Origin: Actinomycetes bacterium
GTDB lineage: Bacteria > Actinomycetota > Aquicultoria > CAJVYJ01 > JAUVQD01
Assembly: GCA_030605305.1 (NCBI GenBank)
Contig: JAUWIO010000057.1
Location: 1-6,128, forward strand
Reading direction: 5' to 3'
DNA length: 6,128 bases
The notes under the pieces are model-generated. The model was not told the origin of the DNA. It was given only the letters and a program-made list of their open reading frames with translations, and did no database searches. This document shows, in pieces, positions 1-6,128 of the stretch. Every line of letters begins with the position of its first letter. The first letter of the stretch is position 1. The translations under genes were made by a program, and so were the position numbers.

Positions 1-194
1 GGCCAGACAATGGTCTCGAAACGCTTGAGCGATAGCGCCGCCAGGGCCATCAAAGAATAGGTCAAGATAGCGACTAGTATCCATGAACCCTCGGACCCCA
101 GTGCCGGAAAGACGGGCTCGGCTCGGAGCAACCACAGGCGTAAAGGAAGAATGTAAAAGAGTCCGACGAAAACGATGCTGACCAGAAATATCAC
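1..194 (-). CDS. Small membrane protein, N-terminal part only (unrecognised)
   Basis: The first 64 codons of a gene that leaves the window at the left edge. It starts with GTG at 194-192, which overlaps the TGA stop of the 688-residue gene in the arrangement GTGA. A perfect AGGAGG Shine-Dalgarno sequence sits 7 nt upstream, inside the preceding gene, so this start is well supported. The visible protein is very hydrophobic. Residues 1-23 (MIFLVSIVFVGLFYILPLRL onward) form a first membrane helix or signal anchor. A short loop with RAEPVFPALGSEGS follows, then a second membrane helix at about residues 38-56 ending in the basic LKRFE. Arg/Lys follow both hydrophobic stretches, so the topology is unclear. 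I recognise no family. The overlap suggests translational coupling to the 688-residue protein and hence a role in the same membrane complex, which is inference from position. Length and C-terminal domains are unknown. Confidence 0.8.
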   Translation of the reverse strand, partial: MIFLVSIVFVGLFYILPLRLWLLRAEPVFPALGSEGSWILVAILTYSLMALAALSLKRFETIVW

Positions 195-2257
195 GCCGCG
201 TCCTCCTGGACGAGAGGGGCGAAGGCCAGCTGAACGTAGATGAGCTGATGCGGACGCGAAACATCGACGACTCCCGCTTCCCTGAGAAGAGTAGGATCGG
301 CCGCGAGCGGCGAAGAGCGGCCGCCCGGCAAGGCGGCCAGGATCACGGCCTCGGAACGGGCCGATGAAGTCGGATGAGGCGGACGCGAATCAGACCGGAG
401 CTGATCAAAAAGCGCCGCTATGGATTCGCGGTCACTAGCTGCCTCCAGCAGTGACCGGTCGAGGGTCTGTTCGTCGACGAATGTCAGTCCGGCGCGCGCG
501 AAGTCATCGAGACCGGCCGCCAATTCTTCTCCTCCGAGTGAACGCCATTCTCGATGATGGCCCGCCGCATAACGGACCGACTCATCCTCTTTATCGTAGC
601 GACCGCGTTTGTATCGGGGGTGGACCGCCGGCTCCACCAGTGAAAAGAACGGGCGGGGGGTCTGACTAATAGAAGTATCTTGAGCAGCCGGAGGTACCCC
701 ACTCAGGGCGTGCAGATATAGCTTACGGAGCCCAGTCAGGGCCTCCTGCTCCGCTAAGAGCGCCGCCGACCAACTATGAACGGGCTCGGCTTCACCCTCG
801 TCGACGTCCGCCCCCGATAGCCACTCCGCCAGCAGGCGCCACCCGGCCCGGTCCACTGCGGCTCGATATTGAGCGACCAATGATTCTATATATAGGGAAC
901 GGGAGTCACGTAACGAAGCCTGGGCCCGCCGAAGAAACAGGAAGATGAAAAGGCCGGTGAGGATGGCTGCCGCGGCCCCGAAAACGGGGGAGGGTGGCAG
1001 ATAGGCCGGGTTGATATAGCCTTCGGGGAAAGCTCCCAGGACCCGCACGAATTCCACGCCGAAAAAGTATGTCAAAGATATCAGTAGCCAACTGCGGGCG
1101 GCGAGCGCCACCGCTTCCGGGTGACCTTTGATCCGCCTAATAAGATCCGTGCGAAAGACCTCCGGGTCCTTGAGCTCGACCGGCTTGGTAGCGGCGCGGC
1201 TCTCCACTTCATCTTTGAGCGCCGCCGTCCGCTCCCCGAGGCGGTCGAGGAATCTCCCTGTTTTGTCCAGAGCACCCGATTCCGCCATGAGGTCGTCGAG
1301 CTCAGAGCCGAGCGCCGCAGCCTCGCTCTCCCCGAGCCGGTCGAGGTTACGTTGCAGTCGACCGATGATCCGCGGTAATCGCTCCCGCCCAATATAATCT
1401 ACGTGGCCGTCGATCTTCTTCACCCAGGAAGAGAGCGGTACACCGGCAAATTGGCGAGTCTCTACGATCAACGCGTCGACCGCCGTCCCCTCGTCATCGG
1501 CGACGACCACCTCTCTAAGAGCATCCGCAAAGAACTCGCGCCGCTTCAGATACTCGTCTGCCTGCCGATAAAAAAGTTCGCCGGCTCCGCCCAATAATCC
1601 TTCGTTGACCAGCTCATGAATGAAGCGGTCCGATTCCTCCTCGACCAAGCTCTCGATCGGATGGACCAGCCCCGCCAGTCCGACTCCGGCCGAACGGGCC
1701 CGGCGGACCTCCATGATATCTCCAAGCGCCGCACCGAAGGATGGTTCAGCCAGCAGAGACGCGAAGGCAGCGGCAGTATCGCTTTGATTAGACCCGGATA
1801 CAAAGAAATGCCGATGGTAAATGCTCTCATCGGGGAAAGCGGCGGTCTGCGGGGGCAACCGAAAGATCCCGGTCGCCTCGATCGGTCCGACCCGGAGCCG
1901 GTCGGTGGAACTGTTGAAGAGCCTCGCCAGTCCCGCACTTAACTCCATGGCTCCGGGGTCTTCTCTGTCGGCGATCGTCACGACCGCGGGGCGCGGCGTC
2001 CCGGTTCCGGACCGATCCGGCAGCTCAATAAACTTACCGGCGCACCAATCTATAAAGGAGTCCGGTGTCTGTGTGTCTCTCAGACCGGCGGGACACTCGA
2101 CCAGAGTCAGGCCCCCAACCGTCTGAAAGGAGAACCCCGGCGCGCTATCGACTGTGCTCAGGGCCGCCATGACCACGGCGGCGCTTGGTTTCGATGACTC
2201 CAGGCGGCGCAATGAATCGACGCCGAACGACCCCAACCCGAGAATAATTACGTTCAT
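191..2257 (-). CDS. Membrane-spanning, degenerate tubulin-like (Tubulin_2-related) protein
   Basis: A 688-residue protein with no function I can assign from memory. It begins with a short hydrophobic strand and a GLGSFG loop (residues 7-12), like the first loop of the neighbouring tubulin-like protein (GLGGTG). Further matches in the same order are: strand AVVTIADREDPG (91-102) where the neighbour has its GGTGSG signature, GIFRLPP (130-136) against SFIFLPG, HFFVSGSNQ (150-158) against YVYIIDRQ, GLAGLVHP with RF 11 residues beyond the Pro (193-212) against GLSRILFP with RF at the same spacing, and HQ followed by PL 11 residues later (670-682) against HQ and PL 12 apart. Both glycine-rich phosphate loops are altered, so GTP binding is doubtful. 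Residues 300-356 form a charged, probably coiled-coil stretch. Two transmembrane helices follow at about 386-408 and 425-442, joined by a Pro-rich loop. The ATG at 2257 is 3 bp after the upstream stop, in the same frame, with no good Shine-Dalgarno, so coupled reinitiation is likely. The gene is certain; the tubulin relationship is inferred by eye. Confidence 0.85.
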   Translation of the reverse strand: MNVIILGLGSFGVDSLRRLESSKPSAAVVMAALSTVDSAPGFSFQTVGGLTLVECPAGLRDTQTPDSFIDWCAGKFIELPDRSGTGTPRPAVVTIADREDPGAMELSAGLARLFNSSTDRLRVGPIEATGIFRLPPQTAAFPDESIYHRHFFVSGSNQSDTAAAFASLLAEPSFGAALGDIMEVRRARSAGVGLAGLVHPIESLVEEESDRFIHELVNEGLLGGAGELFYRQADEYLKRREFFADALREVVVADDEGTAVDALIVETRQFAGVPLSSWVKKIDGHVDYIGRERLPRIIGRLQRNLDRLGESEAAALGSELDDLMAESGALDKTGRFLDRLGERTAALKDEVESRAATKPVELKDPEVFRTDLIRRIKGHPEAVALAARSWLLISLTYFFGVEFVRVLGAFPEGYINPAYLPPSPVFGAAAAILTGLFIFLFLRRAQASLRDSRSLYIESLVAQYRAAVDRAGWRLLAEWLSGADVDEGEAEPVHSWSAALLAEQEALTGLRKLYLHALSGVPPAAQDTSISQTPRPFFSLVEPAVHPRYKRGRYDKEDESVRYAAGHHREWRSLGGEELAAGLDDFARAGLTFVDEQTLDRSLLEAASDRESIAALFDQLRSDSRPPHPTSSARSEAVILAALPGGRSSPLAADPTLLREAGVVDVSRPHQLIYVQLAFAPLVQEDAA
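202..207 (-). promoter_or_regulatory. Ribosome binding site AGGAGG for the left-edge membrane gene
   Basis: On the minus strand AGGAGG lies 7 nt before the GTG at 194, within the codons for the final Gln-Glu-Asp-Ala-Ala of the upstream gene. It is the strongest Shine-Dalgarno sequence in the window and decides the GTG start of a gene whose start would otherwise be missed. Confidence 0.8.
1232..1346 (-). repeat. Two-copy 19-bp intragenic direct repeat, 96 bp apart
   Basis: Copies at 1232-1250 and 1328-1346 match at 18 of 19 positions (plus strand ctccccgag, then g or c, then cggtcgagg) and are offset by exactly 96 bp, which is 32 codons. In the protein they give DRLGE at residues 306-310 and 338-342, within NLDRLGES and FLDRLGER, in the charged helical region before the membrane helices. 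This suggests a short internal duplication of a coiled-coil unit. The flanking sequence is much less similar. Confidence 0.6.
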
Positions 2258-2260
2258 GGC

Positions 2261-5200
2261 CTACCCGGCCAACGGGAATCCGCGGTCGCGCTGGTCCTTT
2301 AACCGGCCGACGTAGGCCGTGAGCGCATCATACTCTCGCCTGAGCATCTCGCGCTCCTCCTCGTCATCCAGACGTTTGACCTCGCTGACGATGATCCGGT
2401 CGAGATACTCCTCGATGTCCGTTATGAGGTGATACTGCTTCAGTTTCTCGAGTTCACCGATGAGCCGGCCGGCCCGATCCGAAACATCCGGAAAACCCAC
2501 CAGGTTTTCAGCCGCCTCGACACGACCGGCGGCTGAAAGTGTCTCGATCGGTCCCATACGCAGGACCTTATCGGACTCGACGAGCTGAACCGCATAATAG
2601 TCCTGGGCATCTCCGGCGAAGACGTATCCCCGCACCGGGCGGCTGTCTATCTTGTCCTGCTCGATCAGACTCAAGATGACCGGATCTTTCTTGAAAACCA
2701 GATAATCAGTGAAGAGACCGAGGGCAAACTCACAAACGGCCTGGTCGTCCAGGCTCGAGGACGTCCGCAAATCAGGAAGGGCTTCGATCTCCCGGCTCCA
2801 ATCTTGCCGAATATGTAATGGCTGGCTGCCCGAGAGCTTGGCGCGGCGCATGTATTGCTTATAGTCGGCGCGCAAAGCCGGCATGACCCGCAGAGCGAAG
2901 AGTGGCAGGCCATGTTGTGCCTGCAAGAGAGTGACCTGATGGTTATCGGCTGTCCGCACTAGTCCGGGGCGGTTCTGTCCCTGTGGTAGGGGCAGCGCAT
3001 CAGGGTCGCTATAGCCGAGCGAAAACGTCCGCGGAAGATCGACCGTACCCGCGTCGTGGGCCTTTTCTTTATCATAATTCCAACATGGTTGGGACAGCTC
3101 GAAGAGGTTGCCCATAACTTGTTCGGAAAACTTCTGCTGCCCCACACTCTCGTTGACGGCTTCTACGGCCGTGCGGCTCAAAGTTTCCTTGAAGAGCTGC
3201 CTGACGTGCTCCGAGACCATCGCTATCAGGACCTTATTGATCTTGACCTCCTGATCGCTAGTGGCCAGATCATACAGGCCTTGCCCGTGCACACCCTGAG
3301 TCTCATTCAGTCGAGCCAGGATCGCCTTGACGTGTTTAGACATGTTCGCCGGGCGGACCTTTTCATCATAGACAGCCTGGAACTCAGATGATTCTAAGGC
3401 CTCCAGCACCTTATGCGGAAAGATCTGCGTGGTGATCGTCGCCCCCCTATCGGCTTTGGCCAGCGCCCGATCCCGGCGACGTTCATCCGCGCGTTCAGCC
3501 AGATGGTTCAGGCGCCCGATGATCAAATCTATCTTATCCAGCTCCCGATCGATGACGCTGCGCTGGACTTTGCGACCGACGCGGATCTCTTCGTCCTCCA
3601 GGTATTCCTCAACGACCTGCTCTTGGCCGACCAGCGCCGTCAGCAGGTGTTGCTTGCGATCGGCTATCCTTTCTTGAAAAGACGCCTCGGCCAGGTCTCT
3701 AAGCGCCGATGCCAGGCGCCTCGCCGCCTTGCCGGTGTTACGGCCGCGAAACGGCACGAGCGAGTCACCGGTGAGACGCTCCAGCGATACCAGCTCCTTG
3801 TTGAGCGCGGCCCGATGGCGCCCTTTGATAACGCCCCATTCAGACTTCTCCTCGCGCATTTGACGCAACAACTCCCGGGCGCTTCTTTTTGCGCCCATGA
3901 CAGTCTTTTGGGCATAGGCGACGCCCAGCTCGCAGTGGTCGACCAGATTGACGACCGCGTCGACAACCTCCTTCTTCGCCTCCTCCTCATGAGCCCGGCA
4001 GTTACGGTCGATCAAAAGGAGCCCCTCGGTGATCCGGCTATCATTGAGGTCGATCTCTTTTGTCAGCTTATCGATCCGCCCCTTGCCCAACGCCTGAGAC
4101 AGCTCTCCCCCAGTCGGGATCTGGGCAACGAAGTCGAGAGCCGGGCGGCACAAGTCATCGATAGCGACCATATTCGTCGGCCCCAGGCGTTCGAAGAGGC
4201 CGGCTTGGCGCTCATCGCTTTCGACAGCCTCATCCATCCAGGAATCACTGGCAGGCAGGTCCATATAGATCATGTCGCGTAAGAAGCGGTAGACCAGCTG
4301 CGACTGGATAGTGTGACGCGGAAAAAGTATCCGGCTGAGGCCAAGACTGCTGGAAGCGGTCCGTTTTCCTTGCCGTTGATGAGAGGGCTCGACGACAGCG
4401 TCGATATTGGTCAAGCCGACACCCTCCTCCTCCTGGCCTACGGGCGTGACGATCATCTGATACATGGCGTCTGCCGTCAGGTCGTAAGCATCCTCCGGGC
4501 GGTCGAGATTGCCGATATTACCGAGCTGGCGGTCGATAATGTAGACGTACTTAGACAGGTTCCCAGCCGGTATCATCACACGCTGGCTGGAATCTCTGGT
4601 CTTGGTGTCCAGGATATATTTATTGAGGTCGCTGCCCGGCGAGAGAAAGTAGTCTAGCTCCTTGAGAAAAGCGTAGGCATTGGCCCGATGCGCCGAAACT
4701 AGTTCGAGAGAGCGCTTTCGCGCCTCTTCCTCATAGACCCCGGGCAGAAAAATAAACGAGCGTATCTCCGGCACCCGCCCCTGGGACAAAACGGCCCGCC
4801 ACACTTTATACAGGATATCGAGGAAGATCCCGCTCCCCGTCCCCCCGCAGGCGGACGAGATGATATAAACGCGGAAATTACCGCCTACATCGGCCAGGTT
4901 CTGGTCGCGCACCAGGTCTTCGTAGAGCGTGCACGTATCGACGACTTTCTGGTGGATGATCGATTCCACCTGGTAGTGCATCTGATGCAGAAAGAGCCGC
5001 CCCAGCTGGCGCACGCGCTTGGCCCCCCACTCTTGATATTGGGGCGAGACGTGGTAGCGATTGTCCCACCAGTCGCGCAAGTTCCGGTCCTTGGCGTAGT
5101 TCTCCTGAAGAAAGCTGTAACCGTTGAAGTCCTGGGCCAGATTGACGTACTCCTCTTCCGACTCCGAGAAGGTGCGGACGATGTCGGGATTCTGCTGCTT

Positions 5201-5443
5201 CAGGAGCCCGATGGTGTCAAAGAGGAGGAACTTGATCATGTCCGCGTGCTCCTGGACCTGACCGTATTCGACTTGGAGATGCTGCTTTAAGCGCGCGGCC
5301 GTCTCGGCCCCGGTGCCGCCAAGGCCCAAAATCAAGGTCGGCTGCGGCGCGCGCCTCTCGAACCTTTCGGCCTGGACAGCTTCGCGGCTGCGAACTTCAC
5401 CGGTCAGCCCTTCAAAAAACTCCTCGTTCAGTATCGAACACAT
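2261..5443 (-). CDS. Tubulin-like GTPase, Tubulin_2 / FtsZl-1 family
   Basis: A 1060-residue member of the tubulin/FtsZ superfamily, expected to bind GTP and probably to polymerise in the cytoplasm. The Rossmann-like core starts with strand PTLILGLGGTG (35-45), the first nucleotide loop. FLLFDT (72-77) fits the second strand and loop. The superfamily signature is at 196-205 (SSACGGTGSG) after strand RVYII, followed by helix IFLDILYKVW. FIFLPGVY (230-237) and KYVYIID (298-304) are further core strands. Next come the GLSRILFP element (368-375), a long charged helical region (about 470-660, probably coiled coil in part), a C-terminal module with HQ (835-836) and GLPLF (845-849), and a highly charged helical tail (about 993-1055). 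I see no membrane segment or signal peptide. The length suits Tubulin_2 proteins, which are far longer than FtsZ. ATG 5443 is the first possible start, because an in-frame TAG lies 12 nt upstream, and AGGGGA precedes it by 5 nt. Family membership is solid; a membrane-remodelling role is the published proposal for the family, not shown here. Confidence 0.9.
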   Translation of the reverse strand: MCSILNEEFFEGLTGEVRSREAVQAERFERRAPQPTLILGLGGTGAETAARLKQHLQVEYGQVQEHADMIKFLLFDTIGLLKQQNPDIVRTFSESEEEYVNLAQDFNGYSFLQENYAKDRNLRDWWDNRYHVSPQYQEWGAKRVRQLGRLFLHQMHYQVESIIHQKVVDTCTLYEDLVRDQNLADVGGNFRVYIISSACGGTGSGIFLDILYKVWRAVLSQGRVPEIRSFIFLPGVYEEEARKRSLELVSAHRANAYAFLKELDYFLSPGSDLNKYILDTKTRDSSQRVMIPAGNLSKYVYIIDRQLGNIGNLDRPEDAYDLTADAMYQMIVTPVGQEEEGVGLTNIDAVVEPSHQRQGKRTASSSLGLSRILFPRHTIQSQLVYRFLRDMIYMDLPASDSWMDEAVESDERQAGLFERLGPTNMVAIDDLCRPALDFVAQIPTGGELSQALGKGRIDKLTKEIDLNDSRITEGLLLIDRNCRAHEEEAKKEVVDAVVNLVDHCELGVAYAQKTVMGAKRSARELLRQMREEKSEWGVIKGRHRAALNKELVSLERLTGDSLVPFRGRNTGKAARRLASALRDLAEASFQERIADRKQHLLTALVGQEQVVEEYLEDEEIRVGRKVQRSVIDRELDKIDLIIGRLNHLAERADERRRDRALAKADRGATITTQIFPHKVLEALESSEFQAVYDEKVRPANMSKHVKAILARLNETQGVHGQGLYDLATSDQEVKINKVLIAMVSEHVRQLFKETLSRTAVEAVNESVGQQKFSEQVMGNLFELSQPCWNYDKEKAHDAGTVDLPRTFSLGYSDPDALPLPQGQNRPGLVRTADNHQVTLLQAQHGLPLFALRVMPALRADYKQYMRRAKLSGSQPLHIRQDWSREIEALPDLRTSSSLDDQAVCEFALGLFTDYLVFKKDPVILSLIEQDKIDSRPVRGYVFAGDAQDYYAVQLVESDKVLRMGPIETLSAAGRVEAAENLVGFPDVSDRAGRLIGELEKLKQYHLITDIEEYLDRIIVSEVKRLDDEEEREMLRREYDALTAYVGRLKDQRDRGFPLAG

Positions 5444-5477: not shown

Positions 5478-6128
5478 CTAGCTCCACTGCAATCTATATT
5501 CCCCGATCTGGACTATGGAGCCGGAATGAAGCTCCATCTCTTCAGTCACGATCACCGGTGTCGACGCTGTTGAGCGCGCCACCCTGACTGTCCCTTCCCG
5601 CGGGCGGATGAAAACTTTGGCTTCCCCGTCGTCCCAGGCTGTAAAAAGCTCCGCGTGGACAGGCTCGATGCCCGCGCCGCGCAGAGCTACGCTGCCATTC
5701 GCGCCCAAGCTCGCCCGTCGTCCCAGACCCTCCAGATTTACCGGTCGGGGTAGTTTCTCCCCCTTAGGAGCTGCGGAAAACGCAAGTCTTCCAAAAAGAG
5801 GCGGCGCGAATAATCCCCGGTACGCCAGCTGGCCCGCCGGGTTGACCGCATAGCGCCCGAAGAGCAGAAGAGTGGTGAGCGCGGCCAGCCCGACCAGGAC
5901 GAATACGTACAGCGCCAGACCAGTCGTCCGGGAGAAAAGTATCTCTTTCTCCGGGCCGCTCGTCTTGATGACAGGGTCGACGCCGAGGCGTTCGATCTTC
6001 GGCGCCAACGGCAGTTCGGCCACGAGCGCCACCTTCAATTGCCCGCGCCACGACTCTTCTTTCTTTAAGTCAACCGCGTCGGCGCCGCGGGGCGCAACGA
6101 CCTTTATCGGGATCGTCCGGCGCTCACC
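5478..6128 (-). CDS. Membrane-anchored protein with C-terminal degenerate FHA-like domain, 5' end outside window
   Basis: The reading frame is open to the right edge, so the 216 visible residues are the C-terminal part of a longer protein (numbered here from the first visible codon, GERRTIPIKV). Residues 1-65 have strand-like stretches (TIPIKVVAP, LKVALVAELPL) that suggest a beta-rich domain I cannot name. Residues 69-91 are one clear transmembrane helix (TGLALYVFVLVGLAALTTLL). After a Gly/Pro-rich linker, about 131-216 resemble a forkhead-associated fold: GLGRRASLGANGSVALRG, then GIEPVHAELF, KVFIRP, EGTVRV, and the typical ending SGSIVQIGEYRLQW. The FHA histidine is kept (H158), but the phosphothreonine-contacting Ser-Arg before it is Glu-Pro and the Asn-Gly turn is missing, so phosphopeptide binding is doubtful. 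FHA domains are normally cytoplasmic, which would put the N-terminal part outside. A vWA domain further upstream is possible, since FtsZl-1 loci often include one, but is not visible. Stop TAG lies 34 bp before the tubulin-like gene. Confidence 0.8.
   Translation of the reverse strand, partial: GERRTIPIKVVAPRGADAVDLKKEESWRGQLKVALVAELPLAPKIERLGVDPVIKTSGPEKEILFSRTTGLALYVFVLVGLAALTTLLLFGRYAVNPAGQLAYRGLFAPPLFGRLAFSAAPKGEKLPRPVNLEGLGRRASLGANGSVALRGAGIEPVHAELFTAWDDGEAKVFIRPREGTVRVARSTASTPVIVTEEMELHSGSIVQIGEYRLQWS

What the first reader, a model, noticed from the sequence alone, without database searches (positions are those of the whole stretch)
191..5443. Tandem pair of tubulin-like paralogs, the second strongly diverged
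The 688-residue protein can be lined up by hand with the 1060-residue Tubulin_2 protein at six places in the same order. These are GLGSFG/GLGGTG, VVTIADREDPG/VYIISSACGGTGSG, GIFRLPP/SFIFLPG, HFFVSGSNQ/YVYIIDRQ, GLAGLVHP with RF at Pro+11/+12 against GLSRILFP with RF at the same spacing, and HQ followed by PL 11 or 12 residues later. The distance from the shared Pro to the shared HQ is nearly equal (470 and 460 residues). I know of no described heteromeric Tubulin_2 pair. If real, this would be an alpha/beta-like duplication in a bacterial tubulin system.
Basis: partly seen in the sequence, partly recalled or inferred. Interest (0 to 1): 0.7.

Follow-up and report, generated by a model that had tools for sequence, protein, structure and literature searches.

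The report
Membrane-moored pseudo-tubulin paired with bacterial tubulin
Next to a gene for a bacterial tubulin-like protein lies a second gene for a predicted, strongly diverged tubulin relative that lacks the GTP-binding signature and has a predicted membrane hairpin; the two genes recur as neighbours in distant bacterial phyla, so the second protein is likely a dead-enzyme partner that would anchor or cap the first.

The parts
5478..6128 (-). 3' part of the upstream membrane protein gene (216 aa here; the gene is cut by the contig end at 6128); FHA-like C-terminus, VWA in full-length relatives
   Evidence: open ORF; PF00498 FHA 13.9 bits, below cut-off 20.7; 10 of 12 upstream proteins of relatives scanned match VWA over a cut-off
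2261..5443 (-). FtsZl1 / Tubulin_2 protein, 1060 aa
5309..5326 (-). FtsZl1 T1 loop GLGGTG (residues 40-45)
   Evidence: G42, G43, G45 invariant in the 20 sequences of A3
4829..4846 (-). FtsZl1 T4 tubulin signature GGTGSG (residues 200-205)
   Evidence: GG[TS]G[SATC][GAS] in 23 of 23 paired FtsZl1
4400..4417 (-). FtsZl1 T7-like loop GLTNID (residues 343-348)
   Evidence: lies after predicted helix 316-332, at the start of helix 347-351 and before strand 364-373; pLDDT under 50 at 335-339 and 341-344; N346/D348 nearly invariant in A3 but variable in wider FtsZl1; T7 assignment is inference
2900..2941 (-). FtsZl1 C-terminal strand HQVTLLQAQHGLPL (residues 835-848)
   Evidence: predicted strand 836-846; inside the part spanned by the CetZ match, model 33-873
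191..2257 (-). second paralog, 688 aa pseudo-tubulin
2222..2239 (-). second paralog T1-like loop GLGSFG (residues 7-12)
   Evidence: aligned to GLGGTG; strand 3-8, helix 9-21
1952..1969 (-). second paralog, degenerate T4 (DREDPG, residues 97-102) in place of GGTGSG
   Evidence: aligned to the T4 region; tubulin signature in 0 of 23 second paralogs
1736..1753 (-). second paralog, junction of helix 158-169 and helix 172-184, where a T7 loop would lie (residues 169-174)
   Evidence: AF2 secondary structure and alignment; inference
1031..1087 (-). predicted membrane segment 1 (residues 391-409)
   Evidence: hydropathy 1.63 over 19 residues
932..988 (-). predicted membrane segment 2 (residues 424-442)
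   Evidence: hydropathy 2.3 over 19 residues
212..250 (-). second paralog C-terminal strand HQLIYVQLAFAPL (residues 670-682)
   Evidence: predicted strand 671-679; aligned to FtsZl1 HQ..PL, weakly; inside the span of the FtsZ/CetZ match
3..194 (-). start of the fourth gene (polytopic membrane protein, cut by the contig end; 352 aa in the sister genome), overlapping the second paralog's stop by 4 bases
   Evidence: ORF; full copy L017:4762-5820; homologous in other phyla

Best explanation
The 688-aa gene encodes a predicted FtsZ/tubulin-fold paralog of the FtsZl1 protein encoded just upstream; it lacks the tubulin GTP-binding signature and is likely the GTP-incompetent, membrane-moored partner that would anchor or cap FtsZl1. 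Shown by sequence: adjacency with 3 bases between the genes, absence of the signature in 23 of 23 second paralogs, and recurrence of the pair, in many cases with a VWA protein before and a polytopic, transglutaminase-like membrane protein after. Predicted: the fold, and two membrane helices inside a helical insertion that would hold a tubulin-like head near the inner membrane. Inferred and untested: FtsZl1 binds GTP and assembles head to tail; the pseudo-tubulin head docks on FtsZl1 through the longitudinal interface, and since it has neither a phosphate-binding T4 signature nor a recognisable T7 loop it would end or seed a filament without triggering GTP hydrolysis; the VWA-TM-FHA protein would link this cytoplasmic assembly to the outside and could read phosphorylation.
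Against: Six of 23 second paralogs (G587, L132, L136, L161, L162, L163) show no mid-protein hydrophobic segment and two (G742, L135) show one. Seven of the eight group X loci have 2.9-3.2 kb after the second paralog without a fourth-family gene; the eighth (L135) ends too soon. So mooring is not universal. Gaps are wider elsewhere: 179 (G005), 45, 57 and 59 bases (G740, G742, G587). Many FtsZl1 stand alone: of 58 recognisable Armatimonadota FtsZl1 loci, 9 had a firm second paralog next door and 1 a weak one (5 of the 58 had too little sequence). Group X aligns to other second paralogs strongly (149.7) but to FtsZl1 directly only weakly (46.2 over 38 columns, reversed 30.9). The AF2 model rests on 8 sequences (pTM 0.53; five models 77.8 to 40.0). 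No interaction, GTP binding or filament was tested. Tree agreement is also expected from shared descent alone. T1 glycines are kept in many second paralogs, so some nucleotide binding cannot be excluded.
Confidence: 0.55

Rival explanations
1. An alpha/beta-like heterodimer: the two proteins alternate 1:1 in one filament, with the pseudo-tubulin as the permanently non-hydrolysing half.
For: Paralogy, tight gene coupling in several genomes and matching trees; the fold matches of FtsZl1 include BtubB and Asgard AtubA/B, which work as pairs.
Against: The second protein lacks the T4 signature in 23 of 23 and apparently T7 in the window copy; a membrane hairpin would force every second subunit into the membrane.
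Confidence: 0.2
2. A regulator that binds FtsZl1 monomers and keeps them from assembling, or a structural pseudo-tubulin that serves the VWA and transglutaminase-like proteins without touching a filament.
For: Recurrent gene order with these membrane proteins; absence of the signature in all 23.
Against: No sequence feature favours it over anchoring; tree agreement of the pair points to a direct partner but does not exclude this.
Confidence: 0.2
3. The 688-aa protein is an unrelated coiled-coil membrane protein and the resemblance is chance or a model artefact.
For: No Pfam or NCBIfam hit for the window protein; pairwise BLASTP E 0.46; Foldseek alone puts long-helix proteins first.
Against: Profile scores against controls, PF13809 hit over cut-off in a relative, VIA-align top 50 all FtsZ/CetZ/tubulin.
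Confidence: 0.03

Closest known systems
FtsZl1 family (Makarova and Koonin 2010, PMC2875224) = Pfam Tubulin_2 PF13809
   Same: The 1060-aa protein belongs here; same VWA-linked operon type as that paper describes.
   Different: They could not identify T6-H7 or a known C-terminal domain; the AF2 model here matches CetZ over 301 of 342 residues, C-terminal part included.
BtubA/BtubB of Prosthecobacter and Asgard AtubA/B
   Same: Two tubulin-superfamily genes that work as a pair.
   Different: Those subunits are close tubulin homologues that both bind GTP (recalled); here one partner lacks the signature and carries predicted membrane helices.
FtsZ with its membrane anchors (FtsA, ZipA, SepF)
   Same: A cytoplasmic tubulin-like GTPase tethered to the membrane by a partner.
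   Different: None of those anchors is itself a tubulin-fold paralog (recalled).
CetZ of archaea
   Same: Top fold match of both models, tied with FtsZ for the 688-aa one.
   Different: CetZ lacks the long helical insertion and the membrane hairpin (recalled; the chain matched has 342 residues).

Membership tests
FtsZl1 / Tubulin_2 (PF13809), 1060-aa protein | match over the Pfam cut-off | tested here: met
   136.6 bits, cut-off 27
FtsZl1 / Tubulin_2 (PF13809), 1060-aa protein | GTP-binding signature GGTG[ST]G and T1 glycines | tested here: met
   GGTGSG at 200-205, GLGGTG at 40-45
FtsZl1 / Tubulin_2 (PF13809), 688-aa protein | match over the Pfam cut-off | tested here: not met
   no hit for the window protein; of 15 relatives scanned, one is over the cut-off, four have a weak row below it and ten have none
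FtsZl1 / Tubulin_2 (PF13809), 688-aa protein | GTP-binding signature | tested here: not met
   0 of 23 second paralogs, the window's included
FtsZ/tubulin superfamily fold, 688-aa protein | FtsZ/tubulin fold | tested here: met
Homology to FtsZl1, 688-aa protein | family profile similarity above controls | tested here: met
Alpha/beta-like tubulin heterodimer | both partners carry the GTP-binding signature | tested here: not met
   0 of 23 second paralogs
Alpha/beta-like tubulin heterodimer | the two proteins co-assemble | not testable with these tools
   no complex prediction or experiment available

The most novel reading that the evidence does not exclude
A two-part bacterial tubulin machine, shared by distant phyla, in which a GTP-free pseudo-tubulin embedded in the membrane seeds or caps filaments of a CetZ-like GTPase and couples them to an extracytoplasmic VWA domain: a tubulin-fold protein evolved into the membrane anchor of its own paralog.
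Probability: 0.4. Interest if true: 0.85.

Novelty: new variant of a known kind. Interest (0 to 1): 0.62.

Why it matters
FtsZl1 has had a family name since 2010, but in the listings of my searches I saw no paper that tests its function. A dedicated, signature-less paralog beside it in several phyla gives a concrete, testable partner, and predicted structures of both suggest that FtsZl1 is a full CetZ-like tubulin with a long helical insertion. A dead paralog serving as filament anchor would be a new use of the tubulin fold.

Tried and rejected
Pairwise BLASTP and Pfam/NCBIfam scans of the window's 688-aa protein gave nothing; the relationship shows only with family profiles. The large protein search found only four proteins, the window's included, with the single sequence and the same four with profile A2. 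Solved-structure sequence searches gave nothing useful for either protein. PADLOC gave one weak hit, to the 1060-aa protein (E 0.0059), so a known defence system is not indicated. Foldseek alone was misleading (long-helix proteins first); VIA-align re-ranked its candidates. Weak profile hits not counted as second paralogs: G792:C20 (a FtsZl1 itself), L133 (A5 E 7.4e-7, but group Y, MotA/ExbB-like with coiled coil), and G602, G477 and G802 (not followed up). G611 has a second paralog at a contig end (L084) and is not among the 23 pairs; the FtsZl1 locus of that genome that I read (L149) has none beside it. My first count of the signature (19 of 23) used too narrow a pattern; the alignment shows GGTGAG in the other four and recounts 23 of 23. 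A conserved NxD T7 motif across all FtsZl1 was considered and dropped: it is nearly invariant in A3 but varies in the wider set. Group Y was considered as a third paralog kind and rejected (hhalign 33.1 or less). Paper searches returned nothing.
Full report
What is in the window. The 6128-base window is a whole contig (C282) of a draft genome of 1.3 Mb in 305 contigs. Four minus-strand genes run in one direction: the 3' part of a protein with a weak FHA match (5478-6128), a 1060-aa protein (2261-5443), a 688-aa protein (191-2257) and the start of a membrane protein (up to 194). Gaps are 34 and 3 bases, and the fourth gene's start overlaps the 688-aa gene's stop by 4 bases. A sister-genome contig gives the fourth gene in full (352 aa, L017). 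The nearest named records are Actinomycetota/Actinomycetes draft genomes.

Observation. On their own they are weak: pairwise BLASTP gives E 0.46 at best. The 1060-aa protein matches PF13809 at 136.6 bits; the 688-aa protein matches nothing in Pfam or NCBIfam.

Homology. I aligned eight second paralogs, the window's included (A2), and 20 FtsZl1 proteins (A3). With ten sequences from more phyla (A4) the score is 104.4; A4 reversed scores 22.5, A2 reversed 22.9, and the best of 40 column shuffles 23.2. With 13 sequences (A5) it is 156.3, against 20.9 reversed and at most 20.0 in 20 shuffles. N-terminal parts alone score 80.8 (reversed 15.5). C-terminal parts alone score 32.5 (reversed 17.1; probability only 20) and put the HQ..PL segments in register. 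Directly, some second paralogs match PF13809: G006 at 36.8 bits (cut-off 27), and below the cut-off G742 24.5, G005 19.7, the Abditibacteriales copy 17.5, G740 14.7; the other 5 of the 10 scanned gave no PF13809 row, nor did five further ones.

Lost motifs. The pattern GG[TS]G[SATC][GAS] is in 23 of 23 FtsZl1 proteins of the pairs and in 0 of 23 second paralogs (the Abditibacteriales second paralog lacks its N-terminus and the G006 FtsZl1 is its N-terminal 554 residues). In the window copy the T4 position reads DREDPG, and the aligned copies show one or more acidic residues in that stretch (by eye). T1 glycines are often kept. In the model the helices before and after the expected T7 loop are only two residues apart, so T7 looks deleted (inference).

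Recurrence. In 60 related genomes (G000 included), PF13809 is found in 8; in two of these (G005, G006) the search lists the second paralog as a further match. The protein itself is found in 6 of the same 60 and profile A2 in 6 of 396 of the phylum, all within the order; the seventh FtsZl1-bearing genome of the order, G004, has a contig that ends 46 bases after FtsZl1. Beyond the phylum: WOR-3 (L040) and Chthonomonas (L041) have it adjacent; an Abditibacteriales and a Poribacteria genome have it on another contig, both genes lying at or near contig ends. The genome search counts the Abditibacteriales genome to the phylum of Chthonomonas. Phylum samples: WOR-3, 2 of 147 with a match, one convincing; Armatimonadota, 8 of 251, six convincing; Poribacteria, 2 of 84, the second not followed. 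PF13809 is in 80 of the 251 Armatimonadota genomes. I fetched 60 of the FtsZl1 regions listed there; 58 gave a recognisable FtsZl1. A second paralog lies next door in 9 firmly: L141, L134, L135 and L166 by profile A5, and L132, L136, L161, L162 and L163 as members of the same BLAST group (group X), whose profile aligns to A5 at 149.7 (38.3 reversed) but to FtsZl1 directly only at 46.2 (30.9 reversed). One more is weak (L172, E 0.0072). Five of the 58 have under 1.5 kb downstream. So the pair is widespread but not a general feature of FtsZl1.

The pair as a unit. Of the 23 pairs, 20 lie on one contig; G002, Abditibacteriales and Poribacteria are split over two. The two trees agree (distance correlation 0.90; 0 of 2000 permutations reach it). 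On a quick tree of 77 FtsZl1 domains the label 'paired' needs 5 changes against 20.0 for shuffled labels (the loci with too little downstream sequence counted as unpaired). These results fit an old pair inherited or moved together; shared descent alone also gives such agreement. The order VWA protein, FtsZl1, second paralog, polytopic membrane protein is seen in G003, G005, WOR-3, Chthonomonas, G742 and G587; in G001 the first protein is cut and gives no Pfam match, in G740 it is a 398-aa protein without a Pfam match. In all, 10 of 12 upstream proteins scanned match VWA over a cut-off. FHA is over the cut-off only in the Poribacteria protein (27.9 bits) and weak or absent elsewhere. The fourth protein is one family: a profile of the four Actinomycetota copies hits 9 of the 10 others clearly, L172 not; a transglutaminase-like match is over the cut-off in WOR-3 and Abditibacteriales and below it or absent in the rest scanned. 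In group X, seven of eight loci have no fourth-family gene within 2.9-3.2 kb after the second paralog and the eighth ends too soon; five of the eight show no mid-protein hydrophobic segment.

Mechanism. Best reading: a GTP-incompetent pseudo-tubulin, in 15 of 23 cases with a predicted hairpin, that anchors or caps FtsZl1. Shown: absence of the signature, gene coupling in several genomes, recurrence. Predicted: fold and hairpin. Inferred: FtsZl1 filaments, docking on the longitudinal face, no hydrolysis at that contact, linkage to the outside through the VWA protein. Rivals are an alternating heteropolymer and a monomer-binding regulator; nothing here decides between them beyond the lost motifs and the hairpin.

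Literature. Searches listed no paper that I could recognise as describing a Tubulin_2 pair of this kind. From PMC9871819 I read passages only: it treats Tubulin_2 proteins as divergent FtsZ-like sequences with irregular architecture. From PMC5898192, PMC12008871 and PMC13286277 I also saw passages only. Most subscription papers and the supplementary files were out of reach, so priority is not proven.

Noticed in passing
L133, L157, L160 and similar Armatimonadota FtsZl1 loci without a second paralog: The gene after FtsZl1 is a membrane protein with a long coiled coil and a MotA/TolQ/ExbB-like match (PF01618 over cut-off in L157, just below in L133 and L160, none in L165), followed in several loci by a 1-TM protein of about 216-238 aa: FtsZl1 may work with a proton-channel motor there.
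   Followed up: partly
L017:4762-5820 and copies in L018, L020, L040, L041, L075, L076, L084-L087: The fourth gene of the module is a polytopic membrane protein with a transglutaminase-like region; the Cys of a GDC-like motif is kept in most copies, while the later His (GHVA) is changed in the Actinomycetota copies.
   Followed up: partly
window 2261-5443: The AF2 model of FtsZl1 has a CetZ-like tubulin core, C-terminal part included, interrupted by roughly 400 residues of mostly helical insertion, which bears on a question left open in 2010.
   Followed up: partly
L133, L142, L145, L160 (GGTCSG); L144, L146, L173 (GGGGTG): T4 variants occur in some Armatimonadota FtsZl1, so even the first paralog may have altered GTP binding in some lineages.
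   Followed up: no
L181 (G802:C294:4252-4749): A further Poribacteria genome has a partial second-paralog-like match in an 879-aa frame (E 6.8e-11).
   Followed up: no
PMC12008871, passage seen: The paper reports a Methanoculleus operon with several VWA proteins and a tubulin-like protein (called CetZ there) upregulated by agitation; whether that protein is FtsZl1 was not checked.
   Followed up: no
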